Source: a candidate division TM6 bacterium GW2011_GWF2_43_87
GTDB lineage: Bacteria; Babelota; Babeliae; Babelales; Babelaceae
DNA length: 64,000 bases
Assembly: GCA_001000065.1 (NCBI GenBank)
Contig: LCGZ01000001.1
Span: 310,001-374,000 of the forward strand
Direction: 5' to 3'
A program made the position numbers and the translations under genes. The notes under the pieces were generated by a model. It worked only from the letters and a program-made list of their open reading frames with translations, ran no database searches and was not told the origin of the DNA. Below are positions 417 to 63,644 of the stretch, one piece after another. The stretch's first letter is position 1. Every line of letters begins with the position of its first letter.

Positions 417-3400
417 TTATTTATTCCATACCAAACGTCGGTCATATATGTCATTTTTTATAATGAAGCATGCTTGCTTTAAAGACAGCAATTGGCTTTG
501 CGCAAAATTATTAAGCATTGAACTTCTTTTTTGCAATAGTTTTAGCTTGTCCTCTAGGGATGTTTCGCCCTTGCAACTATTCATACCGTTTGACAATTTC
601 TGCAAAAGAAAGTCCATTTTATCATAAACTTTCTTTTGCCTTTTGCATATTACACTGCTAGCTATCGCTATTTTTCCCCAAACTGCATGGACATCATTTT
701 TCATTTGGCAAAATCTTCTACTTAGCTCGCCCGCCAACAGTCCACTAGACTGTGCACTGATATATTTCAACTCTTTATGCATAGCCCCTATTTTCATCAG
801 AGAATCCTTGATACAGGACTTGCACATTATGACATCATCAACATAATATCTTTTTTGTGGCTGCTCAAATGCGCTAAATGGGTCTTTTTTTTGCATAAAG
901 AACTTGCTAATTTCTGGGTCAAGGTCTAGGGCCGTACGACCATTTGGATCTTTGAGGTTAACATCGGCACCCATTTCAACCAAAACTCTTTCAAACTCAC
1001 ACCTGTGACTAAAAGCTGCGTAGTGAAGAGGTGTATAACCAAGGCTGTCTTTGAGGTCAACTTTAGCGCCCTTTCCAATAAGTTCTTTTATTGTTTTAAC
1101 CGTTCCACCACCTTGACAAACACTATGAAGAGAAATGCTCTCAGGTTCGTTCGAAATTACGGTTGGTGATTCACCTTCCTCCTGCTGCTGGATTAAAAAA
1201 TCAAGCAGCTTTCCGGCATCTTCTTCCGCAGACTTTACTTGAACTTCGCTAGTTAGAGGCTCTTGTAATGTTAACAGATCACCATCCTTAGGTTGTTTCA
1301 CTAGAAAATTTACCTCCTGCGGCTCCTCTGCAGGAACATCCACATTGGTTTTATTAACCCCCAATTCAGGTAATTCTGAAGAATTGCTTTCCATCCTTTT
1401 CACCCTGGATTCGTCTAATTTTAAATTAGATTTATTTTCCTGATCCCCAGCCTCGAATCCTAATTTATTAATAGATGGTTCAGGCAATGTGTTTATGAAA
1501 TCTTGGAATTCTGGGATTAGCGCATCCTCCATCTTTAGATAGCCCTGCACCGTTGACAGCAATTCCTCAAATAGATCATCCTTTATCGCCGACTCTTGGT
1601 AATTTTTTAAAAATAAGTCCAAAAGAGCTACCGAAGGTTTTATTTTGCACGACCGCACAAACGAATCAAATAATTTTTTATCCTTCTCAAACCAAATGTT
1701 AATATCCTGGAAATGCCTGTAAGGAGCAAGTTGATGTTGACTGTTGATTATGCTACCCATTTTTTTTATGTCAAAATATTGCCCATAGCCTGCTTGAGCA
1801 AATTTGAGACGCTTACAAAGAGTGTCAAACTGGGAGCTAGTCAAATTAAAAAACCGCTTAACCAACAGTGGGAACGGTGTTGTAGTACAAACAGATCTAC
1901 ACACTCGATCCTCTTCAACTGAATGCCAATTCCAAGGCATGATCCAGTCTGGTGCTTTTCGAGAGAAAAATGCCCAAATAAAATATTCGATTGCTTTTAT
2001 TATTGCGGCAGGATCTTCGACATCCTTTGAATTAAACAAGGGGTTGCCTTCGGGAACCATAGGACAATTCCCACAACTATTCTTAAACTCCGTAGCCATT
2101 ACTTCAAGGACAGAGCGTAAAAACTTATCTTGAGCACTATCTTTGTTTCTTGTTTTAAACGGAACAAGGGCCTCAAACAATTTAGTTATCTGCTCTATAT
2201 CCCAATAAATATGGATAAAACTACTCCAAATCTCTGCGCCATTTTCGATCAGAAACTTTGTAATTTCAAGATTTTTGTTTTCACATACTAGCTCAAGTGG
2301 AGTATATCCATCACCACTTTTTAAATCAGCACTAGCTCCCCATCTAATAAGGAACTTAATATTTTGCAAGTTATCTTTTTTGCAAGCCAAATGGAGCGGT
2401 GTAAGACCATCTTTAGTTTTAAGGTTAAGGTCGGCCTGATGTATAACTAGAAGCTTTACAATTTCACTATTATTTTTTTCGCAAGCGTAATGCAGGGGAG
2501 TATAATCAACTTTATTCGTTAAACCAAGACACGCACCCTTTTCAACCAAAAGTTTTGCAATTTCAACACAGTTATTTTCGCTGGCATAATGGAGCGGAGT
2601 ATAACCAACCGTATTAGTCGGATTAAGGTCCGCGCCTTTTTCAATCAAAAGTTTTGCGACATCAATATTATTATGTATGCAAGTATAATGAAGTGGGGTA
2701 AGGCCAACATAACCCTTTACATCTAGCTTCGCACCACCCTCAATAAGAAGCTTAGCTACAATTGGATTATTTAAAAAACAAGCTAAAAGAAGAATACTTG
2801 GATCATCAAGGTTAGCCTTATGTGCAATAAAAAGTTCTAAGATCTCAATATTATTGTTAACAAACGCATAATAGAGAGGAGCGTTGCCATATTTGTCTTT
2901 ACGGTTAAGATCTGCACCACCATCAATAAAAAACTTAACACGATCAAGATTCCCCTCTTTGCAAGCTAAGTGAAGAAGTGTAAAGCCATCATTGTCTTCG
3001 ACATTAAGGTCAGCTCCTAGGTTTATAAGCAGTTGGGCCATCTGCATCTTATTATTTTTACAAGCCTCCTGAAGAGGAGTTAAACCATCGTTATCTTTAA
3101 GGTTAAGAGTTGCACCGCTCATAATAAGGAGTGGGGCAATTTTCTTTTTCTCGTGCATGCAGACCAAGTGCAGAGGAGTACAACCAAGATTGTCTTTGAG
3201 GTTAAGATTTGCGCCATACCCTACAAGGAGTTTAACCAATTTCGCATTGTCGGTCATACACGCCCAATGCAGCGCTGTAAAACCAGCATTGCTTTGAACA
3301 TTGAGATCTGCACCTCCGTCAATAAGAAGCTTAACACGATCAAGATTTCCCTCTTTGCAGGCTAAGTGAAGAAGTGTAAAGCCATCATTGTCTTCGACAT

Positions 3401-4481
3401 TAAGGTCAGCTCCTAGGTTTATGAGCAGCTGGGCCATCTGTATCTTATTATTTTTACAGACCTCCTGAAGAGGAGTCAATCCATCGTTGTCTTTAAGGTT
3501 TAAATTAGCGCCCTTATTAACAAGAAGCTGAACCAATTGCAGCCAATTTTTTCCGCAAGCCACGTGGAGGGGTGTCAAACCATTATTGTCTTGAGTATTG
3601 GGATTTGCACCCCAGTCAATGAGGAGTTGTGCGAATTGTATTTTGTCGTTTTCACATGCTAAGTGTAGAGCTATACGGCCGACGTTGTCTTGAATATTAA
3701 GATTTGCACGGCTTGCAACGAGAATCTGAACGACTGGCCCATTGTTATTTCTGCACGCCTCATGGAGAGGCGTAAACCCAACATTGTCTTGAATATTAAG
3801 ATTTGCATGGCTTACAATGAGATGCTGAACAACAAGCGCATTGCCCAACTTACTGGACCAATGCAGAGGTGCTAACCCAGAATTATCTTGAATATCAAGA
3901 CTTGCACCACCTTTAGTAAGAAGCCTGATCGCCGGCATGTTACCATCTTTACAGGCCAAATTTAGGGGCGTCAGACCGGTGTTATCTTGAATATTAAGGT
4001 TTGCACCCATTCGAACAAGAAGATCTACCATCGCAAAATTATTTTTACAGGCCAAATGGAGAGGTGTAAAGCCAATATTATCTTGAACATTGAGACTTGC
4101 ACCATTTGTAATAAGAAGGTAGGCAATACTCGAAGCATTAGAATCAATAAAGCCTAAAAAGGGGACTGTCTCAAAAAGATTGTTTTCAAGGTCAAATTTA
4201 GCACAACTTGACACAAGGACTTGAGTCAGCTTCATACTGTTGTATTCGCAAGCCACATGGAGGGCTGTGCGCCCTAATCTATTCCTCCCATCAATGTTAA
4301 TCGGTACAGAAGAAGACAAGAAAGAGGATATTTGAGCAAAAACAGAAGGTTCAAGCAACTTAGTTATTCCCTCTATATTTTTCGTGGCTACAAGCCTATG
4401 TAATTTTCCTGCTTGGGCGTTATAGGTACAGATTATTGAAAATAATGCGATTGGGAAAAAAATGGACTTTAGAATTCTCAT
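417..4481 (-). CDS. Large exported ankyrin-repeat protein with shared C-terminal module
   Basis: The product has 1354 residues, starts at an ATG with AAGGAA eight bases upstream, and carries a signal peptide (about residues 1-24, ending AQA). Roughly twenty ankyrin repeats of 33 residues fill about residues 60-760, with the consensus DNxGxTPLHLACxxNN. A non-repeat region follows, containing the module common to seven ankyrin proteins here (about 820-960; VCRSVCTTTPFPLL near 860, then FQDINIWF). A low-complexity acidic stretch, two more ankyrin repeats (about 1120-1190) and a charged helical tail complete it. Ankyrin repeats bind proteins; export suggests a role at the surface or in a host, which is inference. 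One four-repeat block is recently duplicated (see the repeat entry). It faces the same way as the related gene at 4594-6312. Confidence 0.9.
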   Translation of the reverse strand: MRILKSIFFPIALFSIICTYNAQAGKLHRLVATKNIEGITKLLEPSVFAQISSFLSSSVPINIDGRNRLGRTALHVACEYNSMKLTQVLVSSCAKFDLENNLFETVPFLGFIDSNASSIAYLLITNGASLNVQDNIGFTPLHLACKNNFAMVDLLVRMGANLNIQDNTGLTPLNLACKDGNMPAIRLLTKGGASLDIQDNSGLAPLHWSSKLGNALVVQHLIVSHANLNIQDNVGFTPLHEACRNNNGPVVQILVASRANLNIQDNVGRIALHLACENDKIQFAQLLIDWGANPNTQDNNGLTPLHVACGKNWLQLVQLLVNKGANLNLKDNDGLTPLQEVCKNNKIQMAQLLINLGADLNVEDNDGFTLLHLACKEGNLDRVKLLIDGGADLNVQSNAGFTALHWACMTDNAKLVKLLVGYGANLNLKDNLGCTPLHLVCMHEKKKIAPLLIMSGATLNLKDNDGLTPLQEACKNNKMQMAQLLINLGADLNVEDNDGFTLLHLACKEGNLDRVKFFIDGGADLNRKDKYGNAPLYYAFVNNNIEILELFIAHKANLDDPSILLLACFLNNPIVAKLLIEGGAKLDVKGYVGLTPLHYTCIHNNIDVAKLLIEKGADLNPTNTVGYTPLHYASENNCVEIAKLLVEKGACLGLTNKVDYTPLHYACEKNNSEIVKLLVIHQADLNLKTKDGLTPLHLACKKDNLQNIKFLIRWGASADLKSGDGYTPLELVCENKNLEITKFLIENGAEIWSSFIHIYWDIEQITKLFEALVPFKTRNKDSAQDKFLRSVLEVMATEFKNSCGNCPMVPEGNPLFNSKDVEDPAAIIKAIEYFIWAFFSRKAPDWIMPWNWHSVEEDRVCRSVCTTTPFPLLVKRFFNLTSSQFDTLCKRLKFAQAGYGQYFDIKKMGSIINSQHQLAPYRHFQDINIWFEKDKKLFDSFVRSCKIKPSVALLDLFLKNYQESAIKDDLFEELLSTVQGYLKMEDALIPEFQDFINTLPEPSINKLGFEAGDQENKSNLKLDESRVKRMESNSSELPELGVNKTNVDVPAEEPQEVNFLVKQPKDGDLLTLQEPLTSEVQVKSAEEDAGKLLDFLIQQQEEGESPTVISNEPESISLHSVCQGGGTVKTIKELIGKGAKVDLKDSLGYTPLHYAAFSHRCEFERVLVEMGADVNLKDPNGRTALDLDPEISKFFMQKKDPFSAFEQPQKRYYVDDVIMCKSCIKDSLMKIGAMHKELKYISAQSSGLLAGELSRRFCQMKNDVHAVWGKIAIASSVICKRQKKVYDKMDFLLQKLSNGMNSCKGETSLEDKLKLLQKRSSMLNNFAQSQLLSLKQACFIIKNDIYDRRLVWNK
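2915..3506 (-). repeat. Recently duplicated ankyrin blocks, 396 bp apart, inside the first ankyrin gene
   Basis: Segments of about 195 bp at roughly 2915-3110 and 3311-3506 are nearly identical in DNA, offset by exactly 396 bases (132 codons, four 33-residue repeats). Each encodes GADLNVEDNDGFTLLHLACK and flanking residues. Other repeats in the gene are much more divergent in DNA, so this copy is young. The pattern fits unequal crossing-over in units of whole ankyrin repeats. Confidence 0.8.
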
Positions 4482-4593: not shown

Positions 4594-6312
4594 CTATTTC
4601 TCGTTATTTAAATTTAGTTTTTGTACAAAATCGCGAAGTCTAAAATTTTGCTTTTCATCAGCTTTTACAATATTCCCCACCCTTGATAAAAGAGCCTTAA
4701 ATAGGGCGCTTTTAAGCTCCTTATCAGGATCAGACAATGATTGCCTGCCATTCTTTAAGAACGAGTTTAACAGGGCAACAGAAGGCTTTTTTTTGCACGA
4801 TCGTACAAACAGGTTAAATAGCCGCTCATCCTTCTTAAACCAGACGTTAATATCCTGAAAGCGCTTGTAAGAAACTAGTTGTTGTTGATCGTTTGGTACT
4901 TTCATTGCATTGTTTGTTGCATTGACGTATTGCCCATAGGCTGCTTGGGCAAATTTAAGGCGTCTGTAAAAAGCGTTAAGCTGATAAGGAGCCAAGTTAT
5001 AGAGGTGTTTAACCGCTAACTGGAATGGGGTTTTAGTGCAAAGAGTTTGGCAAATCGTAAGCTCTCTTTCTGAAAGCATATTTTTTGGCATCACATAATC
5101 TGGTTGTCTGGAACCAAAGAAAGCCTTTAGAAAACTTTCGACTGTTTTTATTATTACAGTATGGTTTTCAACATCTTGTGAATCAAATAGAGAGTTTTCC
5201 GGAGAAAGCGTGGGGAGAATGGACCCATTCTTAAATTCTGTTGCCAATGATTTAAGAACAAATTGAAAGAATTTATCTTGAATGCTTTCTTTATTTCTTG
5301 CTTTGAATGGAACAAGCAACTCAAATAACTCAATAATTTGCTCAATTGTCCACGTGGAACGAATAATATCAAGGGCTGTTTGACCATTTGCACTTTGAAT
5401 ATTTGGATCAGCTTTATGCTGAAGAAAAAGCGCTACAATTTCAGGACCATTCTCTTTGCATGCGGTATGAAGAACGGTACGTCCACCCTCGCATTTGAGG
5501 TTGAGATCTACGCCTTTTTCAATAAGCAATTGTATAATTTTAAGGCTATCACTTTTTAAAACCTCAGGGCTGCTATTTTTTATGGCACCAGGACGATTGT
5601 TTTTTAAGGCATAATGCAACGGGGTAAGATAACGATCATTAGATCTAGTGTTAGGCTTTGCACCCTTTTCTATAAGAAGTTTTACAATCTCAAAATTGTT
5701 GTTATCACATGCATAGTGAAGAGGTGTATAATTACCTTTGCTTTTAGGATCAGGATCAACTTTTTTATTTATTAAAAACTCGATAACTTTAATGCTGTTG
5801 CTATTGCAAGCAAAATGAAGAGCTGTCAAATCACAATTCTCAGGACCAGTTTTAAGATTTAAATTTGCACCTTTTTTAAGGAGTAAATTTATGACGTCAA
5901 GATTGTTGTTTTTGCAGGCGCAATGAAAAGGCGTTTCTCCACTTTTAGTAGTAAAGTTAATATCTTCGCCTTTATAAAGAAGAAGCTTTATTATTTCGAT
6001 GTTGCCTTTTTCACAAGCAAAATGAAGCGCTTTTTTACAATCTGCTCCTTTATCAAGAAGCAACTGAGCCATTTCAGCCCTGTCACCTTCAGCTTTACAA
6101 ACAATTTGAAGAGCTGTCCTTCCTAATTCATCTTCTTCGTTGATATCAGGGGGTGGACTGAAATAAGAAAAAAAAGGGATAGGTGTTAGCAATTTACAAA
6201 CTTTTTCAACACTTCCGGTTTGCACCAAATTATGCAATGGGCCTGCCTGAGTTCGAAATATGCACAAGAAAAGCAAGACAACTATAGAGATAATAGATTT
6301 AATATATTTCAT
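4594..6312 (-). CDS. Exported ankyrin-repeat protein, paralogue of the upstream one
   Basis: The open frame extends to 6375, but the ATG at 6312 has AGGA eight bases upstream and begins a normal signal peptide (MKYIKSIISIVVLLFLCIF, ending RTQA) that matches the neighbour at 417-4481, so 572 residues are preferred. About nine ankyrin repeats occupy residues 30-330. The C-terminal half carries the shared module: SFLKAFF near 390, then ICQTLCTKTPFQLAV near 421-435, then RLKFAQAAYGQY and RFQDINVWF, followed by SCKKKPSVALL, which is nearly the same as in the first gene. Function is not known. Adaptor-like protein binding by the repeats, with a common C-terminal activity, is inference. Confidence 0.88.
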   Translation of the reverse strand: MKYIKSIISIVVLLFLCIFRTQAGPLHNLVQTGSVEKVCKLLTPIPFFSYFSPPPDINEEDELGRTALQIVCKAEGDRAEMAQLLLDKGADCKKALHFACEKGNIEIIKLLLYKGEDINFTTKSGETPFHCACKNNNLDVINLLLKKGANLNLKTGPENCDLTALHFACNSNSIKVIEFLINKKVDPDPKSKGNYTPLHYACDNNNFEIVKLLIEKGAKPNTRSNDRYLTPLHYALKNNRPGAIKNSSPEVLKSDSLKIIQLLIEKGVDLNLKCEGGRTVLHTACKENGPEIVALFLQHKADPNIQSANGQTALDIIRSTWTIEQIIELFELLVPFKARNKESIQDKFFQFVLKSLATEFKNGSILPTLSPENSLFDSQDVENHTVIIKTVESFLKAFFGSRQPDYVMPKNMLSERELTICQTLCTKTPFQLAVKHLYNLAPYQLNAFYRRLKFAQAAYGQYVNATNNAMKVPNDQQQLVSYKRFQDINVWFKKDERLFNLFVRSCKKKPSVALLNSFLKNGRQSLSDPDKELKSALFKALLSRVGNIVKADEKQNFRLRDFVQKLNLNNEK

Positions 6313-6735
6313 TATTTTTATCCTATGTTTTTTTATAACTTCTATTTTCTTAGTTATTACTAAATTCTTAAACAATTGAATTTACCGAGTTTTGAATAGT
6401 TTTTTTTATTTTCAGCAAGAAACGCCAACTCGCAGGATAACCGTTTGATGCTGAGTTCGCAGGCTTTGAGCTTCCCTTATGAGCTAATAAAGCTGTTTTT
6501 TAAATTTGTCTAACGACAACGCTCTGTTTAATAGTTTCTAATTGTACTAATAGTTTCTATATTGCAATTTTAAGATCCATATAAACGTACAATATGTTTC
6601 AGCCTGTGTCAAACGATAATTTGAAGATTATTATAGAACAATCACCACATCCTAATTTTTTTATCCGCAACAGCCCTGATTTGGACTTCTACACCCTAAC
6701 TTTAAAGAATAAATGGATAACCCAAAGGAAAATTT
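6313..6735. other. Intergenic region between divergent genes
   Basis: This 423-base AT-rich interval must hold promoters for the leftward ankyrin gene and the rightward gene at 6736. A 12-base direct repeat, TAATAGTTTCTA, occurs twice near 6528-6569. A short open frame beginning at 6594 runs into the next gene in another frame and has no ribosome-binding site, so it is not called. No RNA gene was recognised. Confidence 0.4.
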
Positions 6736-11266: not shown

Positions 11267-13096
11267 TTACCAATATCTAAAATCTACATGAGGATACTGG
11301 TGGAGCAGTTTGGATGACCGATGCAGCTTCTCGCAGTAGAACACAGAAACCTTTTTCAACTCCGGGCAACTGTTTAATATCTCCCTCAATCCTTTTTCTG
11401 TAATAGCCGTACAATTTAACGCAACTGTTTTTAGATGTTTAACCTTATTCCATGGCAACCCACTAGCCCTTAGTCCAGTACACTCATGCAACGTAAGATC
11501 TTCAAGAAGCGGAAGATTATTAAGAATATCTGCAAGCCCTGTATCGCTAATTTTCGTTCCCCAGAGGTTAAGTCGTTTTATAGAAGATGCACGCTCCCAT
11601 TTTATAGATTTAAAAAGAAGGGCCTCACAAATACAAAGGCTAAGGTCTTCGAGCACGGGAACTCTATGAAATATTTTATTAAGAGAGCCATCAAATACCA
11701 ACGTATCATCCAATAGAAGGGTTTTAAGATCAAGGGAGTTTTTGCCCTCAAGAGAGGTCGTTGAAATTTTTTTGCACGAATTAAGCTTAAGCTTGACCAA
11801 CCGCTTGCAATGGGTAAAAATCTTCTCAAGCTGCTTATCATTAATTGCCGTAGCCCCGACATTAAGATCAGTAAGAAACGGAACCTTGCACCACGAGAGG
11901 TTACCTTTGAATTTTAATAGATCACATCCGTATAAATGAAGTTTTAATAAAAAAGGGCTATTCTTTAATATATTTTCCAGCTGATCGTCCGTGATATTCG
12001 TAGATCCAACATTAATCCTTTTTATCAATGCAAGATTTTTTTTGGCAAGAATATTAAACCCTACCCGTGGACACTGAGAAAAATTCACATTCTTTAAGTA
12101 ATTGCACGTCCCCAAAATACGTTCAAGTTCATGGCAAGAAATATCGGTCGAAAGGGCCTTTAACACACTTAAATCTTTACAATTCCATACAAAGTGGCTT
12201 AGAGCTACCGCATAACAACTATTTATCTTAAGCTCTTTAAGATTTACACATAAAGCAGGAACAGGCCGTAAGGTAGTGTCATTAATACTGTCTCCAGTAA
12301 AATCAATCGCTCTCAGATTGGTTAACGCTTCCCATGGTGTCTTTTTGAAATTAAGCTCCGTACACATTTTAAGCCCCAACGCAGTAATATTAGGACAACA
12401 TTTTATTATCTCATTAAGTTTCTGATCGCCAATATCAGTCTGCCCCACATTTAAGGCTTTTAAATTAGAAAAAAAAATCCACGGAATATTTTTTATAAGC
12501 ACCGCAGAACAATTAAGAAGGCTAAGCTGCTTTACCTGATTATGAGGCCGCGAATCAAAGGCTATATACAATGAATTCCAGTCGGGATACTTCAATTCAA
12601 AACAACTATTAATACTCAGCTTCTTAATGTGAGGAGCTATGCAAAAAAGTGATGTAAGCTTTTTATCCGTGATGCTCGTACTAGAAAAATCAAATTTATG
12701 AGGAACCAATGGCATACGGCCTTTTTGAAGCTGTATAAGCATTTTTTTAAAAAGCATAAATCTCTTACCTAAATCCAACGTACGATCTGTCACTCGTATA
12801 GTCGGAAAGGGCAGAACTTGCTGATTAAAATTTGCATGCGAAAACCGACTGTTAAGATCTGTACAAATCAACCGAAACTTACAGATTTCCTTGTCCTCTA
12901 AAAAAGTAGCAATAATACGTAAAACATCCGTTGGGATATCTAAAAACGATACAGAAGACTTCGCCGAAGCACTAGGGAATTGTGCCCTTAAAGGAATTAT
13001 AAGCTCATCTGATTTTTTTAAGCTCTTCTGTGCTGAATAAATCGCAGGCGCTGAAAATAAAACTAAAATATAAAATATAATTCTAATAAACCACAT
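11267..13096 (-). CDS. Exported F-box / leucine-rich-repeat protein
   Basis: The frame is open to a GTG at 13126, but the ATG at 13096 follows TGGAGG at six bases and begins a signal peptide (MWFIRIIFYILVLFSAP, ending YSA), giving 609 residues. Residues about 50-86 match an F-box (LDIPTDVLRIIATFL, then ICKFRLICTDLNSRF). From about 120 to the end there are at least twelve leucine-rich repeats of the cysteine-containing FBXL/AMN1 type, with phrases such as LKALNVGQTDIGDQKLNEII and CPNITALGLKMC. In eukaryotes this architecture recruits substrates to SCF ubiquitin ligases via SKP1. Bacteria lack ubiquitin, so a host target is inferred. An AGGAGG-led start and signal peptide show bacterial expression and export. 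Confidence 0.85.
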   Translation of the reverse strand: MWFIRIIFYILVLFSAPAIYSAQKSLKKSDELIIPLRAQFPSASAKSSVSFLDIPTDVLRIIATFLEDKEICKFRLICTDLNSRFSHANFNQQVLPFPTIRVTDRTLDLGKRFMLFKKMLIQLQKGRMPLVPHKFDFSSTSITDKKLTSLFCIAPHIKKLSINSCFELKYPDWNSLYIAFDSRPHNQVKQLSLLNCSAVLIKNIPWIFFSNLKALNVGQTDIGDQKLNEIIKCCPNITALGLKMCTELNFKKTPWEALTNLRAIDFTGDSINDTTLRPVPALCVNLKELKINSCYAVALSHFVWNCKDLSVLKALSTDISCHELERILGTCNYLKNVNFSQCPRVGFNILAKKNLALIKRINVGSTNITDDQLENILKNSPFLLKLHLYGCDLLKFKGNLSWCKVPFLTDLNVGATAINDKQLEKIFTHCKRLVKLKLNSCKKISTTSLEGKNSLDLKTLLLDDTLVFDGSLNKIFHRVPVLEDLSLCICEALLFKSIKWERASSIKRLNLWGTKISDTGLADILNNLPLLEDLTLHECTGLRASGLPWNKVKHLKTVALNCTAITEKGLREILNSCPELKKVSVFYCEKLHRSSKLLHQYPHVDFRYW

Positions 13097-13222
13097 AAAA
13101 AACCTCCAGATTTTTTTAAAAGCCACTTATGCTAGACCTTGTTCACTTATCACAAATAGTATTTTATTACTAATGCGCGTCACAATTCAACAGATAAATG
13201 CAAAGAAGTAACACAAGGCGAC

Positions 13223-23723: not shown

Positions 23724-25595
23724 CTAAATCAGCATCTTACTGGTTGCCAACTCTTTCATTTCCACTTCAGTTAGGCTATCTAAGAGAGAAATAGAACTCT
23801 TTTTTCCCATAGTTTGAGGCTTTTTAAGCACCTTTTTTGCGCCAAGAAACTCAAAAAAAATCTCAAGATCAACGAATCGATTTATCTGCCCACTATTTCC
23901 AGTCTTACCACTAGCACTACACGCCTGGTTATATCGATTATTCTCATAGTACCTTTTATCTTTGGTCATTGAATAGAGAGCATCATTCACTTCCTCTACA
24001 ATTTGAAAAGGCACCTTTTTAAACAGTTTTAAGCAGAGACAATTTTGCAATTTTGTAAGCTTGTTTTTTTTTCTTTCAAAAGGCATTATAGGATCAAAAA
24101 TTGCTTCCAAAAAACACTCGATTATTACAAGCCAATCCTCTGAATTTTTAACAGTCTCAAGATCCTTTAGAAGGATCTTGTCCATTTCAAGCTTTGGTGT
24201 CTTAAAAAATGCTTTTGGATCCTGTAAATCGATAATCTTTTTTATAAAATCAAACTCCACTGGATTTTTATCGGTCTCACAGTCCTTGAAAGGAATTTTG
24301 GCCCTTTCAAGCCTCGATACTTTTGGATACTCTGAATCGATAAAATTTTTCATAAAATCAAGATCCGCAATTAAATTACTATCTAACTGTTTTCCGTCTT
24401 TCAAATTATGAAAAAAAGAATTAGAAAAAGGACATGGTAAAAGGTCTGAAGGTGTCTTGCCATCCAAATCTTTATTGTTCATTGAATAACAACCCTTGCT
24501 TCTTAAAAAGGATATAAGCGATAAGTTATTGAGACAGGCAAGGTGAAGAGGTGTTTGCTTTTCCGGCGTACAGACATTTAAAGAGGCACCGCATTCCAAA
24601 AGGAATTTTACCATTTCGACAGAACTTGATTCACAGGCTGCAAGAAAATGATTACACATTCCATACGATTTAAATTTCATTCCCCAAGACAGAAGACTTT
24701 TTACAAGGGCTACATTATTCGACAAAATCGCTAAATTAAGGAGACTATCAGAGGTTTCACTCGCCAGTGCAACCCTTTTCCGCACAGCATCGTTTAATAA
24801 AAGCTGGTTTACAATATTAAGAAATCCCATTCTACAAGCTTGCTGGATGGGCGTTCCAATCCTAACACTCCAGGCATTTACACAAGCCCCGTTATCAACA
24901 AGAAATTTTACTATCTCTAAAAATCCTTTGCGACAAGCTATATGGAGGGGCGTGTCACTGCTAAATGCGCCATCATCATCACCATCATCATATTTTATAT
25001 TGGCGCCATACGTAGCAAGAAGCTTTACAATTTCTAAAGACCCACCCATGCACGCACAGTGAAAAGGCGTGAATCCATACTTATTTCTTGCGTTTATATT
25101 TAATTTATCATGAAGATCTTCGTAATCCTCATCATCAAAGTCTTCATCACCCTTATCACGAAGCTCTTCATCACCATCATCAAGCACTTCATCACCATCA
25201 TCAAGCTCTTCACCCCCCGTACCACCTTCACACTCCAGAAGATAGCGCACTATTTCTACGTACCGTTTAGCACACGCTATGTGAAGAAGCGTATGCTTAC
25301 TAGGGGAAGTAACAATGTTCTTCCGGACATTTACGCTTTCATAGTTTAATTTTACCGCAGACAAATCTCCCTTGTAACAAGCCTGCACAATAGCCTTCTC
25401 CTCTGCAGAACAGGGTTGCTCAGCAACCTCAACCATAAAATCATCACTATTATGTCCTGCCAGAAAATTGGCATGCGCCTCAAGCTCTGCGTCATAGTCT
25501 ATTACTACTGATAAATCAGAATTACTTGCTTGAATATAAGTTATGCACACAGCACACAAAATGAATACGCTCACTATTTTTTTTATAATTTTCAC
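23724..25595 (-). CDS. Exported ankyrin-repeat protein, duplicated pair copy 1
   Basis: The longest frame begins at a TTG at 25631. The GTG at 25595 is preferred because GGAG lies upstream and it aligns exactly with the ATG start of the sister gene at 27745 (both KIIKKI, signal peptide ending AS). That gives 623 residues. Ankyrin repeats cover about residues 60-400 and are interrupted by a run of about 34 Asp/Glu/Gly-rich residues near 130-165 that is much shorter in the sister. The shared C-terminal module follows (DWLVIIECFLEAIF, then LCLKLFKKVPFQIV near 520, then RFVDLEIFF). The protein ends with the tail LTEVEMKELATSKMLI shared with the next two genes. Confidence 0.87.
   Translation of the reverse strand: MKIIKKIVSVFILCAVCITYIQASNSDLSVVIDYDAELEAHANFLAGHNSDDFMVEVAEQPCSAEEKAIVQACYKGDLSAVKLNYESVNVRKNIVTSPSKHTLLHIACAKRYVEIVRYLLECEGGTGGEELDDGDEVLDDGDEELRDKGDEDFDDEDYEDLHDKLNINARNKYGFTPFHCACMGGSLEIVKLLATYGANIKYDDGDDDGAFSSDTPLHIACRKGFLEIVKFLVDNGACVNAWSVRIGTPIQQACRMGFLNIVNQLLLNDAVRKRVALASETSDSLLNLAILSNNVALVKSLLSWGMKFKSYGMCNHFLAACESSSVEMVKFLLECGASLNVCTPEKQTPLHLACLNNLSLISFLRSKGCYSMNNKDLDGKTPSDLLPCPFSNSFFHNLKDGKQLDSNLIADLDFMKNFIDSEYPKVSRLERAKIPFKDCETDKNPVEFDFIKKIIDLQDPKAFFKTPKLEMDKILLKDLETVKNSEDWLVIIECFLEAIFDPIMPFERKKNKLTKLQNCLCLKLFKKVPFQIVEEVNDALYSMTKDKRYYENNRYNQACSASGKTGNSGQINRFVDLEIFFEFLGAKKVLKKPQTMGKKSSISLLDSLTEVEMKELATSKMLI
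25100..25225 (-). repeat. Short tandem repeats encoding an acidic insertion
   Basis: Repeated blocks close to CTTCATCACCATCATCAAG (plus-strand view) encode runs such as LDDGDEVLDDGDEELRDKGD inside the ankyrin domain of the gene at 23724-25595. The sister gene has one short acidic phrase (DDEGDEDLNDEF) at the same place, so the run was expanded by slippage or unequal exchange. Frame is kept throughout. Confidence 0.75.
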
Positions 25596-25616
25596 AGTGT
25601 TTGTTCTCCAGATAAG

Positions 25617-25715
25617 TTTAAAGTGCCGCAATAAAATATAGCTACTTTAACAGATAATATTTAATAGATAACGCAGCCAAAACTATTCATTCTAAAAAAC
25701 AATAGAAAAGGTTAG
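25617..25715 (-). repeat. Duplicated 5' flank of the ankyrin pair, copy 1
   Basis: This stretch matches 27757-27860 closely, including AAAATATAGC.ACTTTAACAG and AAAACTATTCAT. Both copies lie immediately upstream of the paired ankyrin genes, so the duplication carried the promoter and leader as well as the coding region. The AT-rich block TTTAACAGATAATATTTAAT probably contains part of the promoter. Confidence 0.75.
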
Positions 25716-26098: not shown

Positions 26099-27745
26099 CT
26101 AAAGCAGCGTCTTACTGGTTTCCAACTCTTTCATTTCCACTTCAGTTAGGCTATCTAAGAGAGAAACAGAACTCTTTTTTTCCATAGTTTGAGTCTTTTT
26201 AAACACCTTTTTTGCACCAAGAGACTCAAAAAGAATCTTAAGATCAACAAATCGGTTTATCTGCCCACTATTTCCAGTCTTACCACTAACCGTAAGCGCC
26301 TGGTTATACCGATTATTCTCATAATACCTTTTATCGTTAGTCCTTGGATAGAAAACACCAATCGCTTCATCGATAATTTGAAAAGGCTTTTTTTCAAACA
26401 GCGTTAAACAAAGAGCATTTTGCAACTTCGTAAGCTTATCTTTTTTTGTTTCAAAGGGCATTACAGGGCCAAAAATCGCTTCCAAAAAATACTCGATTAT
26501 TACAAGCCAGTCCTCTGAATTTTTAACTTCCTCAAGATCCTTTAGAAAGATATTGTTTCTTTCAAGCTTTGATGTCTGAAAAAACACTTTTGGGTTCTGT
26601 AAAGCAATAACCTTTTTTATAAAATCAAGCTCCGCCGTTACCCCACCATCTAACGATTCTTCGTCTTTTAAAGGAAAAACAGAGACAGGGAAAGAGGTTG
26701 GGAAAAGATCTAAAGCTGTTTTGTTATCCAAATCTCTTTTAGCAGTAGCAGTAATTGAACAACCCTTGCTTCTTAAAAAGGATATAAGCGATAAGTTTTT
26801 GAGACAGGCAAGATGAAGAGGTGATTGCTTCTTCTTCTGTGTACAGACATCTAAACAAACACCACGTTCAAAAAGGAATTTTATCATTGCAACAGAACTT
26901 GATTTACAGGCTGCAAGAAAATGATTACACATTCCATACGATTCAAATTTCATTCCCTGAAACAAAAGAAATTTTACAAGGTCTACATTTCCCGATAAAA
27001 CCGCTAAATTAAGAAAATCTTTAAATTCAGTCTTCAATGAAGCCCCTTCTGAAATAAGAAATCTTACTATCTCTAAAAATCCTTCCCTACAAGCTTGCTG
27101 AATAGGCGTTTCCCCCTTAAAATTCTTAGCATTTATACATGCATTTTTTTCTAAAACAAGAAACTTTACTATGTCTAAAAATCCGTTACGGCAAGCTAAA
27201 TGAAGGGGAGTGTCGCAGTGGAGCACCTTATCGTTAGAACCATAGTTTATATAGGCACCATACTCAACAAGAAGCTTTACAATTTCTAAAGACCCACCTA
27301 TACACGCGCAGTAAAAAGGCGTATCTCCATGCTCATTTTTAGCGTTTATATTGAATTCATCATTAAGGTCTTCATCACCTTCATCATCTACATGCTCCAG
27401 AAGATAGCGCACTATTTCTACGTACCCCTTAGCACACGCTATGTGAAGAAGTGTATGCCCGCTAGGAAAAGTAACAATATTCTTCCGGACATTTTTGTAG
27501 TTTGCTTTTACCACAAACAAATCTCCCTTGTAGCAAGCCCGCACAACATCCTTCTCAACTTCAGAACGTGGTTGGTCTGCAGCCTCAACTACAAAATCAT
27601 AAGGTTGAATTTTCGGCAAAGAATTCACATATGCATTAACCACCGAAAGTAAATTAGGGATACCCACACCATTACTTGCTCGAAGATAATTTGTACACAC
27701 CGCACATAAAATGAGTAACTTCGCTATTTTTTTTATAATTTTCAT
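26099..27745 (-). CDS. Exported ankyrin-repeat protein, duplicated pair copy 2
   Basis: The 548-residue product starts at an ATG at 27745 (MKIIKKIAKLLILCAVC), with a signal peptide to about residue 23. Ankyrin repeats fill about 50-350. The shared C-terminal module (DWLVIIEYFLEAIF; LCLTLFEKKPFQII near 440-455; RFVDLKILFE) and the tail LTEVEMKELETSKTLL follow. Most of the sequence aligns directly with the gene at 23724-25595; main differences are the acidic insertion and small losses in the ankyrin region. The C-terminal part is better conserved than the repeats, suggesting selection on the module. Confidence 0.88.
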   Translation of the reverse strand: MKIIKKIAKLLILCAVCTNYLRASNGVGIPNLLSVVNAYVNSLPKIQPYDFVVEAADQPRSEVEKDVVRACYKGDLFVVKANYKNVRKNIVTFPSGHTLLHIACAKGYVEIVRYLLEHVDDEGDEDLNDEFNINAKNEHGDTPFYCACIGGSLEIVKLLVEYGAYINYGSNDKVLHCDTPLHLACRNGFLDIVKFLVLEKNACINAKNFKGETPIQQACREGFLEIVRFLISEGASLKTEFKDFLNLAVLSGNVDLVKFLLFQGMKFESYGMCNHFLAACKSSSVAMIKFLFERGVCLDVCTQKKKQSPLHLACLKNLSLISFLRSKGCSITATAKRDLDNKTALDLFPTSFPVSVFPLKDEESLDGGVTAELDFIKKVIALQNPKVFFQTSKLERNNIFLKDLEEVKNSEDWLVIIEYFLEAIFGPVMPFETKKDKLTKLQNALCLTLFEKKPFQIIDEAIGVFYPRTNDKRYYENNRYNQALTVSGKTGNSGQINRFVDLKILFESLGAKKVFKKTQTMEKKSSVSLLDSLTEVEMKELETSKTLL

Positions 27746-33940: not shown

Positions 33941-35194
33941 TCAAGAAGCAGCGAAGAAGATTTTCATATCAAATTGCTGCTTCTTCAACTCCGCTTTTGA
34001 CTCAATAGACGTTTTACCCATTTGGACCATGCCTGCAACTCGAGCAACGGCCCCAAGGTTCTTAAAAAACAGGTCATATCCCTTACGGGTTGCATCCTCA
34101 AATTCCAGCCAACAATCCAGAGGCATTTTATCACATAGCTCCCTGCATAACGCCAAAACAGCTGGCGAAAGATAAAGCAATTCGCTAGGAAAACGGTTTT
34201 TGCTAAGAGTAGCAATTAGGTAAGCACGCACAAAACCCAAAAAATCATCAGGATTCATATTCTCAGCTTTAAGAGATTTTATGAATTCTAAATCAAAAGA
34301 AGGCAGAATCGTCTTAGAAGGATCGATCCGAAACTTTGTCATAATCTCTTTCTCGACATAGAACTCATACTTACCATACGCATCTCTAAACCCTTGAAAA
34401 AGACTCCGGTCAAAAAAGTAATCTGCAAGATTTTGATAATAAAAATGGAACTCCATAAGTGGCCAAATAGATATAACCACAGAAGATATATCATCCGATT
34501 CTACGCCTGAGCGAGCTAAGTGAGTAATGCGCATATTATGGACAAATAGACGTATAACAGATAATGCCAACTCTTCCTCTGCTGAAGAGCTATCACACAT
34601 TTTATGCAACGCAACCTTAATAATCCCAGCAGGATTCTTAATAAGAGGATTTAGACGAAGCTTTTCAAAAAGCGTTATAAGTATCTTAATATTTCTACTC
34701 TTCACAGCACCCGTAAAAAGGTAGTGCGTATTTTTATCCTTTTTATCAACCACAGCACCTCGAGCAACCAAAAGATTAAAAACATCAAACGCTCCGCTCC
34801 TACAGGCCCAATAAAGAGGTGTACGCTTCCCTTTATTAATAAATCCTTGAGGATTTGCACCGCTATCAAGCAAGAATCTTGTTGTTTGCAGAGATTTTCC
34901 CTCCGCTTTTTTACACGTTTCTATAAGGCAATGCGTTAGCAACCATTTATCTTCTGGCTTTAAAAACGGAGCAAATTGCTTCATTTTCTCCAGGTTATTT
35001 TGCTTAAAAGCCCTTGAAAATTTTTTGGCTGCCTTTGAAACAATCGCCACCTCCATTCCCTCCATTCCCTCCCCCCCACCTACTCCCTCATCTTTTTGGC
35101 AACTCTGCAGGGCTGAAGAATCCAAAAAAAAGGTACAAGCATGCAAACAAAATACAATTAATAGGCGGAAAGGTAGGCGATAGTCATTTATCAT
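33941..35194 (-). CDS. Exported ankyrin protein with shared C-terminal module
   Basis: The product has 417 residues. GGAG precedes the ATG by four to five bases; signal peptide about 1-28. Only about three recognisable ankyrin repeats remain (about 85-185; TPLYWACRSGAFDVFNLLVA). A helical region follows, then the shared module (PDDFLGFVRAYLIA, LCRELCDKMPLDCW near 348-362, ending FDMKIFF). The end of the protein coincides with the equivalent of the RFxDI segment in the relatives. It is convergent with the epimerase gene, 9 bases away. Confidence 0.82.
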   Translation of the reverse strand: MINDYRLPFRLLIVFCLHACTFFLDSSALQSCQKDEGVGGGEGMEGMEVAIVSKAAKKFSRAFKQNNLEKMKQFAPFLKPEDKWLLTHCLIETCKKAEGKSLQTTRFLLDSGANPQGFINKGKRTPLYWACRSGAFDVFNLLVARGAVVDKKDKNTHYLFTGAVKSRNIKILITLFEKLRLNPLIKNPAGIIKVALHKMCDSSSAEEELALSVIRLFVHNMRITHLARSGVESDDISSVVISIWPLMEFHFYYQNLADYFFDRSLFQGFRDAYGKYEFYVEKEIMTKFRIDPSKTILPSFDLEFIKSLKAENMNPDDFLGFVRAYLIATLSKNRFPSELLYLSPAVLALCRELCDKMPLDCWLEFEDATRKGYDLFFKNLGAVARVAGMVQMGKTSIESKAELKKQQFDMKIFFAAS

Positions 35195-46651: not shown

Positions 46652-47046
46652 TTACGGGGTACATATAATTTTCATATCAGATTTGAATCCATAGTTCTTC
46701 TGTGTAAATGGACAAGCAGCACGCTTTTTCTTCAGATATTCGAAAATAATAGTCTCACACATTATGTTTTCACGTCTGTGTGCGCTATCTAGATAACAAA
46801 GAGTCCACCATTTTTTTAATGATGCTCCATTAACAAGTAATAGGTTTACTACATCAGGGAAATTGCTTTTTATTGCATAGGAAAGAGCAGTAGCACCCTT
46901 TTCATTTTGATGATTCAATTTTTTTCCCCGCTTGCTAAGCGTGCGAATTACCTTGAGATAATTCTCTTTTTTATCATCCTCCGTGTAATCAAAAGGTCTA
47001 TTTTTAAAAGATCTTGCATCAGCACCTGATAAAGACAAAATGACAG
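46652..47046 (-). pseudogene. Ankyrin gene fragment lacking its 5' end
   Basis: From about 47046 leftward the frame reads as ankyrin (LSLSGADARSFKNRPFD, then EKGATALSYAIKSNFPDVVN, LLLVNGASLKKWW) and ends at 46652 with KIICTP. No start codon with a ribosome-binding site or signal peptide occurs; upstream codons to 47221 are the antisense of the next gene. The fragment abuts the start of the opposite-strand ankyrin gene, so an inversion or deletion removed its front. It is probably not expressed. Confidence 0.6.
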
Positions 47047-48563
47047 CACTGCATATAGCGGCTGACCATGGCAACACAGAAATCGTCGCCCTGCTGTTAA
47101 ATAGTGGCGCAGATATCAATGCAAAAACTAAATATAACCGCACTGTCTTTGAGTACGCCGCATCCAACGGACATGTTAAAATTATGAAGCTTCTGGTAAA
47201 CAAGGGAGCTACTATCAACACAAATACTGCCTACTCCGCCCTGAGACTCGCCACAGAAAATGGTCGCTACGACGCCGTTTTCTATCTTAGCAATGCGTAC
47301 AATTTTGGTGACCAAGAAGACCCCCTTATACGTATAGCTGCTGCCAATGGATTCTACGACATTGTCAAACTTTTCATTTCAATGGGCGTAGACGTTAACG
47401 CCAAAGATGCCATCAACAGAACACCTCTCATATACGCGGCATACAAAGGTCGCTTTGACGTTGTAAAACTTCTTATTGCAAACGGTGCACTCATAAATGA
47501 AAAAGAGAAATCCAACTACACCGCTTTGCACTGCGCATCTGAATACAACGACTTAAAAATTAATGGCTCACTGCCCGACGAAGACGTTTACCTAAAGATC
47601 GTCGCCCTGCTGTTAAATAGCGGTGCAGATATCAATGCCACGCAGTTTGCGGGTAGAACACCCCTCATCCTTGCAGCAAAAGATGGACTCCTAAAAATTG
47701 TCAAAACTCTTGTCGACCGAGGCGCCCTTATAAACCTAAAAGACACCACAGGCTCTGGACATGGAAGCGCATTAAACGCAACCGCGCTTTTCTATGCCAT
47801 CGACCGCAACCATTTGGACCTAGCTAAATTCCTTATCGAAAATGGAGCGGATGTTACTGCAAAAGCCAACGGGTCAATAAATAAAAACAACCCGCTTGAA
47901 CAACTTAACGCCGCACAACATCCCCTATTTTGCAACTCTCTCCTTCCACTCAAAACAGCAGAACAAGCGGGAGCAAAAAGTGAAGAGTCCATCAAAGCGC
48001 ACAAACAAGAGTGCGCCCTATTACAGCTAGCATTCGAAGCCGCCCTGCCAGAAAGCCCATGCACCTTTGCTTCCCTCAAATCTCACGCACAAGAAGCTAT
48101 ACAAAAGCTAAAGCCGGCATTGCCCAACCGTTACAAAACTGTTGCAGACGCCTTTGCACGCTTCTACTTATTACCTGCCCGCTTCCCAGAAATGTACAAA
48201 CTACTGCAAGAAGAAGAAATACTATGCAAGACGCTGTGCACCCACCTTCCGTTCAAACTAGGCCGTCATCGTTTCTACAAACAATTTTATAACTCAAAAT
48301 CAACGAATTTCTGCATGGTACCATACACTTTTGGGAATTTAAAACGGCTCCTTCCACTTTTAAAAAACCAAAAGCAACCCTCCTCAATTTGCAAACCAGA
48401 TATGCTAATCACCTTCTCCAAGCCTAGAGGCAGCAAACGCAAAAAAGAAAGTCATCTGGAGACCACAGACAACTGGTCATACATTTTCCCCCAATCCCAC
48501 CAGTATGAAGCAATTAATGATAAATTTTACATCTGCATGTCCCACCTGAACCACCAAAACTAG
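47040..48563 (+). CDS. Ankyrin protein lacking a signal peptide, with shared C-terminal module
   Basis: The 507-residue product starts at an ATG that falls in the middle of an ankyrin repeat (MTALHIAADHGN) and has no ribosome-binding site; the in-frame codons just upstream (APDKDK) continue the repeat. About eight repeats fill 1-285. A helical region and the shared module follow (LCKTLCTHLPFKLG near 396-409). All related proteins here are exported, so this is probably a 5'-truncated gene, possibly silent. The long open frame suggests a recent event or use of an unrecognised start. Confidence 0.7.
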   Translation: MTALHIAADHGNTEIVALLLNSGADINAKTKYNRTVFEYAASNGHVKIMKLLVNKGATINTNTAYSALRLATENGRYDAVFYLSNAYNFGDQEDPLIRIAAANGFYDIVKLFISMGVDVNAKDAINRTPLIYAAYKGRFDVVKLLIANGALINEKEKSNYTALHCASEYNDLKINGSLPDEDVYLKIVALLLNSGADINATQFAGRTPLILAAKDGLLKIVKTLVDRGALINLKDTTGSGHGSALNATALFYAIDRNHLDLAKFLIENGADVTAKANGSINKNNPLEQLNAAQHPLFCNSLLPLKTAEQAGAKSEESIKAHKQECALLQLAFEAALPESPCTFASLKSHAQEAIQKLKPALPNRYKTVADAFARFYLLPARFPEMYKLLQEEEILCKTLCTHLPFKLGRHRFYKQFYNSKSTNFCMVPYTFGNLKRLLPLLKNQKQPSSICKPDMLITFSKPRGSKRKKESHLETTDNWSYIFPQSHQYEAINDKFYICMSHLNHQN

Positions 48564-48710
48564 AGGATTAGCAATCACCTCGCACCATCACAAAAAAATA
48601 ATTGACATAATAACAAAAACCACATTTCACAGTAGGAATTTTTTAAAATTCATGGTACTATAAATACATAAAAACAAATCAAGCCCTTATTGAATATTTA
48701 TCGAGTAATC

Positions 48711-58960: not shown

Positions 58961-58969
58961 ATGTATACT

Positions 58970-62063: not shown

Positions 62064-63485
62064 TTATTTTTTGCAAAAGCTCTTCATCTCATCAAGATTG
62101 ATTTCTCCAATACGCGGCCGCAAACTGGAAAACAACAGAACCGTCATTTGTAACAATCCCGGATGACGAGTGAAGAATAATTTAAGCGGGGTAGTTCCAA
62201 AAAATTTTGCGCATAACATCTCTTCACTCAGAGTCAATTCAAGCCCCTTAGGAACAACGCCAAGACTTTTGACAAATTTTTTACACAGTCGATACGTATC
62301 ACTCTTAGTCAACGTCTCTTCATCATTTAAAAATGCATCCACCTTATTTTTACGCACAGCCTCTTTAAACCGTGCAAAAAAATTAAAGCATTCATCCTGA
62401 AATGCGAGCATCAACTTCAAGTCAGCATCAGGCTTCCTAATCCGTTCAAGCGAAAACTTTTTGGGAAATGGTTTCATCTGAAAAAAACGCCTAAAAAAAG
62501 CCGAGCTATGTGTAAAACATTTTAACGCCCGGCGAGATACCTCAGCCCCCGATTCTATAAGTAAAGTTGCAACCTCAACCCGTTTTACTGATTTTACCGT
62601 ACTATCAAGTGGCGCAACCCCAAAGATCGACTTTGTATTTACCTTAGCCCCCTGTTTTATAAGAAGCTTTACAACGTCAACAAAGTTAGAAGAAGCTGCA
62701 CAATGAAGTGGGGTCCAGAGACCATTATTTTTAACATCAACAAATGCCCCTTTTTTGAGCAACATATGAACAGCCTCAATTCGATTTCCCTGCACCGCAA
62801 GATACAACGGAGTGCATCCCTCGCTATCCCACGCCTCAATGTTCGCCCCTTGTGTCAAAAGAAACTCAATCGATTCAAGCTTTCCACACAATCCAGCAAG
62901 ATGAAGTGGTGTACGCAAACAATCATCACGAACATCTATGCCAGACTTCATTTTAGACCATGCCAAGGCTATAATTTTTTCATTCCCCCCCATTGCAGCA
63001 TAATGGAGCAACGTACGCTTATGGTCGTCACAAGCATCCACCCTTGCCCCCTGTTCTATAAGAAATCGACAACCTTCTTCATATCCAAAAAAAGCAGCTT
63101 GAAGCAAAGGCGTTTTTCCCTCTACCCCCTTTGCCTCCATCTTCGCTTTCCTTTGCACAAGTACCTTAATTATCTCTACTTTTTCAACCCCCACCGCACA
63201 ATGAAGAGGCGACAGTTTTAACAGATTTCTTGCCTCAATAAAAGCCCCATTATCTAAAAGAAACTCCACAACCTCCTTGGTAGAATAAAGTGCCGCAATA
63301 TGCAGAGGAGTGTTGCCCCGCGAGTCTGGAAACCCCACAAAGACACCATTTTTCAAGCATTCACTTATGCCTTTTATATTCCCATCCCGTACATAATCAT
63401 GAATTAAATAGGCATTGCTAGTCTGTGCTGCACCTATCCACAAACACAAGGTCACCAGTCTTAAAACTAATTTTACACATGTCAT
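62064..63485 (-). CDS. Exported ankyrin-repeat protein with shared C-terminal module
   Basis: The ATG at 63485 follows GGGAG and begins a signal peptide (MTCVKLVLRLVTLCLWIG, ending TSNA); 473 residues, not the longer frame to 63578. About ten ankyrin repeats run from 25 to 340 (GNTPLHIAALYSTKEVVEFL; GCTPLYLAVQGNRIEAVHML). A linker follows, then a divergent form of the shared module (ECFNFFARF; MLCAKFFGTTPLKLFF near 422-437). It ends with a helix KSFCKK. It is single, facing left. Confidence 0.85.
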   Translation of the reverse strand: MTCVKLVLRLVTLCLWIGAAQTSNAYLIHDYVRDGNIKGISECLKNGVFVGFPDSRGNTPLHIAALYSTKEVVEFLLDNGAFIEARNLLKLSPLHCAVGVEKVEIIKVLVQRKAKMEAKGVEGKTPLLQAAFFGYEEGCRFLIEQGARVDACDDHKRTLLHYAAMGGNEKIIALAWSKMKSGIDVRDDCLRTPLHLAGLCGKLESIEFLLTQGANIEAWDSEGCTPLYLAVQGNRIEAVHMLLKKGAFVDVKNNGLWTPLHCAASSNFVDVVKLLIKQGAKVNTKSIFGVAPLDSTVKSVKRVEVATLLIESGAEVSRRALKCFTHSSAFFRRFFQMKPFPKKFSLERIRKPDADLKLMLAFQDECFNFFARFKEAVRKNKVDAFLNDEETLTKSDTYRLCKKFVKSLGVVPKGLELTLSEEMLCAKFFGTTPLKLFFTRHPGLLQMTVLLFSSLRPRIGEINLDEMKSFCKK

Positions 63486-63644
63486 AAAAGCTCCCTCGCC
63501 CCTGCCTTCAAACGTGATAAATATAAAATATTGACCACCAAATCGACTCAACCTATGTCTCTTTGCAATTACTGTCAAGGCGACCGTGCAATAACCTAGA
63601 AGAGGATGCCACTAAAAATCAAATGAAAAACCTGCTAGTTCATA

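What the first reader, a model, noticed from the sequence alone, without database searches (positions are those of the whole stretch)
1600..2130. One C-terminal module shared by seven otherwise divergent ankyrin proteins
The ankyrin proteins at 417, 4594, 23724, 26099, 33941, 47040 and 62064 all carry, after the repeats, a pattern like LCxxLCxKxPFxL. It is preceded by a helix such as ExFLxAFF and followed in most by RFxDI(N/E)xF. Examples: VCRSVCTTTPFPLL, ICQTLCTKTPFQLA, LCLKLFKKVPFQIV, LCRELCDKMPLDCW, LCKTLCTHLPFKLG, LCAKFFGTTPLKLF. The rest of each protein varies. A fixed effector-like module with variable ankyrin arrays points to a family-wide function not named by any domain I know. The pox PRANC domain was considered; its pattern differs.
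Basis: partly seen in the sequence, partly recalled or inferred. Interest (0 to 1): 0.82.

Follow-up and report, generated by a model that had tools for sequence, protein, structure and literature searches.

The report
Helical tail domain on ankyrin proteins
About 25 otherwise different exported ankyrin-repeat proteins of one small parasite-like bacterium, and about ten in its sister species, share the same undescribed helical tail domain, which may be a common docking part for interchangeable target-binding arms.

Summary
It is a domain of about 125-195 aa (usually 160-175) directly after the last ankyrin repeat. Leave-one-out profile tests support six of the seven window proteins (E 1e-5 to 1e-15); 62064 is marginal (E 0.02-0.05, no tail). 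The profile finds 25 copies in this genome and 10-11 in the one sister species held, but nothing credible in 99 other genomes of the phylum, including ankyrin-rich ones of the same family. AlphaFold2 gives a confident all-helical domain (pLDDT 86, pTM 0.76) with the same helix order in a second, divergent member. No match was found in the PDB, BFVD, Pfam, PRANC or F-box. The module is more conserved than the ankyrin part in 8 of 8 related pairs. The three most conserved residues lie in a tail predicted to be disordered. Best reading: a genus-specific adaptor domain of secreted ankyrin effectors that works like the Ank-PRANC/F-box design but is not a member of it. The domain is well supported; its function is inferred.

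The parts
1680..2204 (-). C-terminal module of ankyrin protein 417-4481 (LVPFK at 2154-2168; CRSVCTTTPF at 1872-1901; DINIWF tail at 1689-1706); followed by 420 aa including a second ankyrin block
   Evidence: profile E 3.9e-48, leave-one-out E 5.6e-8, coordinates
4828..5352 (-). module of ankyrin protein 4594-6375; modelled by AlphaFold2
   Evidence: leave-one-out E 1.9e-15; model pLDDT 86.2, pTM 0.76
23850..24326 (-). module of ankyrin protein 23724-25631 (CLKLFKKVPF, DLEIFF)
   Evidence: leave-one-out E 6.9e-10
26222..26698 (-). module of ankyrin protein 26099-27745 (VFPLK, CLTLFEKKPF, DLKILF); second AlphaFold2 model
   Evidence: leave-one-out E 1e-9
33947..34426 (-). module of ankyrin protein 33941-35194 (CRELCDKMPL, DMKIFF at the C-terminus)
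   Evidence: leave-one-out E 9.1e-6
47910..48425 (+). module of ankyrin protein 47040-48563 (LLPLK, CKTLCTHLPF, DMLITF)
   Evidence: leave-one-out E 6.8e-6
62067..62519 (-). probable degenerate or C-terminally truncated module of ankyrin protein 62064-63578 (CAKFFGTTPL; no DxxIxF tail)
   Evidence: profile E 0.022, leave-one-out E 0.053, not significant; relative at G000:C3:105121
417..4481 (-). ankyrin protein with the longest array in the window that carries the module; N-terminal signal peptide
   Evidence: Pfam Ank E 1e-147; sequence

Best explanation
The module is a real, previously unnamed all-helical domain of about 125-195 aa, found only on Sec-exported ankyrin proteins of one bacterial genus (probably Dependentiae/Babelota). 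It has spread by duplication of whole ankyrin genes. Most likely it is a common docking or adaptor part of host-acting effectors: the variable ankyrin array selects a target, and the helical module with its exposed basic-D-(L/I)-x-(I/V)-x-F tail binds one shared partner, probably a host protein complex. Shown here: domain boundaries, homology, predicted fold, genus restriction, stronger conservation than the ankyrin part, signal peptides on most members, and the conserved tail lying in a region predicted to be disordered. Inferred: action in the host, the shared partner, and the adaptor mechanism.
For: Homology: leave-one-out E 1e-5 to 1e-15 for six of seven window members; independent hits in the sister genome, none used as seeds, down to 1e-22 and 11 after iteration. 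Fold: pLDDT 86/pTM 0.76 for 4594; same helix order in 26099, 74% agreement in helix assignment, and in both models the only bridge within the module joins the P(F/L)K motif to the end of the LCxxLC helix. Constraint: module identity exceeds ankyrin-part identity in 8 of 8 related pairs, e.g. 90 vs 64 and 49 vs 26. Tail: D, I and F are the top three conserved columns yet lie at pLDDT 59-65; present in 29 of 30 members, mostly within 20 aa of the C-terminus; among 340 other ORFs only three carry it within 20 aa of the end, two of them ankyrin proteins and one a sister-genome fragment resembling one of those. Co-occurrence: every copy except one remnant ORF follows ankyrin repeats. One copy sits between ankyrin repeats and a Macro domain (L062; Pfam E 1.1e-8). 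Precedent: seven Orientia Ank proteins of 13-43% identity share a C-terminal PRANC/F-box-like domain and bind Skp1/Cullin1 (PMC4148323).
Against: No activity, partner or translocation has been shown for any member. No structural or sequence neighbour gives a functional clue. The pattern could also arise from plain gene-family expansion in which the module only caps the ankyrin solenoid. Restriction to one genus limits the argument for a broadly conserved host partner. Seeds were partly chosen by the tail motif, which inflates its apparent conservation, although sister-genome members found without that criterion also carry it.
Confidence: 0.45

Rival explanations
1. The module is a structural cap or extension of the ankyrin solenoid (or a dimerisation element) with no dedicated partner; it is shared only because the genes arose by duplication.
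For: It starts directly after the last repeat, it is exclusive to ankyrin proteins, and relatives form paralogous clusters in the tree.
Against: Most ankyrin proteins of this genome do without it, as do equally ankyrin-rich genomes of the same family. The most conserved residues lie in a predicted disordered tail, not at the ankyrin interface. Across all 435 pairs, module identity barely tracks last-repeat identity (Spearman 0.10), although at this divergence both are near the noise floor.
Confidence: 0.25
2. The module is a bacterial sorting or export determinant that carries the Sec-exported ankyrin proteins across the outer membrane or to a chaperone.
For: A common near-terminal motif on variable passengers is typical of secretion signals; most members carry N-terminal signal peptides by a simple heuristic.
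Against: Many signal-peptide ankyrin proteins of the same genome lack it. It is internal in 417 (420 aa after), L031_15295 (553 aa after) and L062 (Macro domain after). No module-bearing non-ankyrin protein was found. Other ankyrin-rich genomes of the family lack it.
Confidence: 0.2
3. It is a very divergent F-box/PRANC-type domain that recruits a Skp1-Cullin ubiquitin ligase.
For: Same bipartite architecture as Ank-PRANC proteins (PMC4148323); the window also encodes an F-box-LRR protein at 11267-13126 (Pfam F-box E 4.7e-4).
Against: No PRANC match in this genome at E<=10; none of 22 modules matches any F-box or PRANC model at E<=1; no PDB fold match; a module of about 165 aa with long helices is larger than an F-box (about 45 aa) or PRANC (97 positions).
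Confidence: 0.08
4. The resemblance is just divergent ankyrin repeats or chance motif matching.
Against: Leave-one-out tests and shuffles; confident non-ankyrin helix pattern with helices of 16-25 residues; no Pfam ankyrin match to the modules; no profile hits in equally ankyrin-rich genomes.
Confidence: 0.02

Closest known systems
Ank-PRANC / Ank-F-box proteins (poxviruses, Orientia tsutsugamushi, Wolbachia, Rickettsiella)
   Same: Variable N-terminal ankyrin arrays with one shared C-terminal domain, as a multi-copy family of an intracellular parasite
   Different: No sequence or fold match to PRANC or F-box; larger all-helical module; different signature motifs (P(F/L)K, LCxxLFxKxP, DLxIxF)
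Ankyrin-repeat proteins of Dependentiae (Babela massiliensis 126, Chromulinavorax destructans 98; PMC4378268, PMC6561590)
   Same: Mass expansion of signal-peptide ankyrin proteins in small genomes
   Different: The passages found by keyword in these papers do not mention a shared C-terminal domain; the module was not detected in any of the 99 other genomes of this phylum searched here
ASB proteins (ankyrin + SOCS box)
   Same: Ankyrin array plus C-terminal adaptor box; superficially similar Leu/Cys-rich helix
   Different: The cysteine spacing does not fit the BC-box as recalled from general knowledge, and the cysteines are not conserved across the family

Membership tests
PRANC (PF09372) | match to the PRANC profile at the C-terminus of ankyrin proteins | tested here: not met
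   no match in the genome at E<=10; none in 22 modules at E<=1
PRANC (PF09372) | ankyrin array followed by a C-terminal domain | tested here: met
PRANC (PF09372) | binds Skp1/Cullin1 | not testable with these tools
   needs pull-down
F-box (PF00646, PF12937) | F-box profile match | tested here: not met
   F-box-like (PF12937) hits in the genome lie outside the module copies; none in 22 modules
F-box (PF00646, PF12937) | F-box fold | tested here: not met
   Foldseek against PDB: best E 1.3, probability <=0.06
Ankyrin repeat (PF00023/PF12796) | 33-residue helix-turn-helix repeats | tested here: not met
   for the module: no hits, long helices; the part before it is ankyrin
SOCS box | BC-box and Cul-box motifs | tested here: not met
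   no SOCS hit in Pfam; cysteines not conserved
The new module family | (L/I)xP(F/L)K ... LxxLFxxxP ... D(L/I)x(I/V)xF after ankyrin repeats | tested here: met
   six of seven window proteins; 62064 inconclusive

The most novel reading that the evidence does not exclude
A new protein fold that evolved within one genus of intracellular bacteria as a plug-in adaptor for ankyrin effectors: it captures a single host complex other than SCF through a conserved disordered D(L/I)x(I/V)xF tail, so that dozens of ankyrin arrays act through one host machine.
Probability: 0.25. Interest if true: 0.72.

Novelty: new variant of a known kind. Interest (0 to 1): 0.5.

Why it matters
The role of the huge ankyrin repertoires of Dependentiae-like bacteria is unknown; the Chromulinavorax paper says so explicitly (PMC6561590). 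A shared domain on about 25 of them turns many unrelated-looking proteins into one testable question: what does this module bind? It also gives a small, well-bounded construct with a short conserved tail that can be mutated, and an example of a new domain family arising and multiplying inside one genus.

Tried and rejected
The search for related loci with the four-sequence profile in genome contigs and viral contigs found pattern matches but no relatives; the wide alignment was too diverse for that tool. A GroEL search meant to name the organism gave only generic bacterial hits. Weak hits in other genomes of the phylum (G022, G055, G047) fall in an overlapping or short frame or in an unrelated enzyme and were rejected. 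Pairwise BLAST alone cannot link the divergent members. The PDB profile search gave only E 0.89. SOCS-box and PRANC readings were rejected. The test for co-inheritance of module and neighbouring repeats is near the noise floor and only weakly informative.

Full report
Setting. The window is G000:C1:310001-374000 of a 1.13 Mb, four-contig genome with at least 187 ankyrin profile matches.

Observation. The seven proteins carry the LCxxLC-like motif after the ankyrin array. A profile of the four clearest copies finds, in the whole genome, those four, two further ankyrin proteins (C1:8542, E 1e-10; C4:174897, E 3e-4) and 47040 (E 0.0025). Reading the C-termini of all ankyrin proteins fetched showed a longer shared region: (L/I)xP(F/L)K right after the last repeat, a helix around ExFLxxhF, the LCxxL(C/F)xKxP helix, and D(L/I)x(I/V)xF close to the stop codon.

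Significance. Because the divergent copies share only 15-25% identity, each was tested against a profile built without it and its close paralogues. Six of the seven window members give E from 1e-5 to 1e-15 and beat 200 shuffles of their own sequence by at least 10 bits; 62064 does not (E 0.05). Its only relative is another ankyrin protein with the same helix motif and an FFPFK start (L175), so it is best called a probable degenerate copy. Some divergent copies outside the window also fail the strict test (L027_5154, L036_12584, L023_4513, L033_4871, L018_1549) and enter only through intermediates.

Distribution. The iterated profile finds 25 places in this genome and 10-11 in the only other genome of the genus. 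None of the sister-genome copies was used as a seed in the first search. Nothing credible appears in the other 99 genomes of the phylum; the weak hits lie in an overlapping frame, short ORFs, or an unrelated enzyme ORF. Several genomes of the same family are as rich or richer in ankyrin repeats (G003, G008, G005, G011), so the absence is not for lack of ankyrin proteins. In the module tree the two species interleave, with few well-supported deep branches: several copies predate the split, and later duplications are seen in both.

Structure. AlphaFold2 on the 4594 module with 22 relatives gives pLDDT 86.2 and pTM 0.76: an all-helical domain with helices of up to 25 residues, unlike the short helix pairs of ankyrin repeats. 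A separate model of 26099 with its last repeats (pLDDT 75.6, pTM 0.52) gives the same order of helices (74% agreement over 151 aligned positions). In both, the only bridge within the module links the P(F/L)K motif to the end of the LCxxLC helix. Foldseek against PDB and BFVD gives nothing below E 0.99; the profile has no PDB sequence relative and no Pfam family. A novel fold cannot be claimed firmly, since no library of predicted cellular structures was available.

Conservation. In eight of eight related pairs the module is more alike than the part before it, from a few points up to 90 vs 64 and 49 vs 26 per cent. The three most conserved columns are D167, F172 and I170, in the tail where confidence falls to 59-65. 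The tail is usually preceded by a basic stretch, ends within 20 aa of the stop in most members, and among 340 other ORFs is found that near the end in only three; two are ankyrin proteins and the third is a sister-genome fragment resembling one of them. A conserved motif in a disordered tail is typical of a docking peptide. The seeds were partly picked by this motif, so its conservation is somewhat inflated.

Architecture. Most members have a signal peptide by a simple heuristic. Copies are normally C-terminal, but in 417 and L031_15295 more ankyrin repeats follow, and in L062 a Macro domain follows (Pfam E 1.1e-8). Many ankyrin proteins with signal peptides lack the module, so it is not needed for Sec export. 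No copy was found on a protein that clearly lacks ankyrin repeats, apart from one remnant ORF (C2:121813) with an internal stop.

Mechanism. The best-supported account is an adaptor: ankyrin repeats bind a target, and the module plus tail bind one shared partner. The closest experimental precedent is Orientia, where seven Ank proteins of 13-43% identity share a C-terminal PRANC/F-box-like domain and bind Skp1 or Cullin1 (PMC4148323). The present module works like that in layout, but is not PRANC or F-box: no match to PRANC at E<=10 in the genome and none to F-box models in any of 22 modules. The partner is unknown. A pure solenoid cap or a bacterial export determinant remain possible and are listed as rivals.

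Verdict. It is a new domain family on a known design (ankyrin array plus C-terminal adaptor).

Noticed in passing
window 11267-13126 (-), F-box at about 12848-12943: A signal-peptide-like protein with an N-terminal F-box (Pfam E 4.7e-4, 20.4 bits against a cut-off of 20.5) and leucine-rich repeats, an FBXL-type architecture that could engage a host SCF ligase; separate from the module.
   Followed up: partly
L062:646-2406 (-) (G000:C3, about 191.7-193.5 kb): Ankyrin repeats + the module + a C-terminal Macro domain (Pfam E 1.1e-8): a possible ADP-ribose-binding or -removing effector carrying the module.
   Followed up: partly
L016:12041-14254 (+) and L016:14444-16900 (+): Two neighbouring ankyrin proteins share a different conserved C-terminal region (YEDALPSTCDIVWFPGSLFTGKSASQHL...), so the genome has more than one C-terminal module type.
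   Followed up: no
L024:3561-4676 (+) and L024:6727-9117 (+): Ankyrin proteins sharing a C-terminal hydrophobic segment with RWWYARRHG(V/L)SF, perhaps a membrane anchor; a run of related genes lies side by side.
   Followed up: no
L027:942-3320 (+) and L031:6710-8959 (+): Two long ankyrin proteins share another C-terminus (LAYGKLYEQKVKNGF / FAAYKTLYKDKIKNGF).
   Followed up: no
G000:C2:121813-122268 (+) (L033:3290-3766): Remnant of a module gene with an internal TAA, next to an intact relative (L033:3868-4815) and another member (L033:4871-6097): a local duplication cluster with decay.
   Followed up: partly
window 46989-48563 (+): Ankyrin protein 47040 has no signal peptide and no upstream in-frame extension, so it may be 5'-truncated, unlike most other members.
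   Followed up: partly
window 48690-50285 (+) and 58961-59896 (+): Two proteins with N-terminal signal-like segments and a KKRTFSQFS / NKRTFSQFS motif in low-complexity Asn/Pro/Thr-rich sequence; possibly another lineage-specific secreted family.
   Followed up: no
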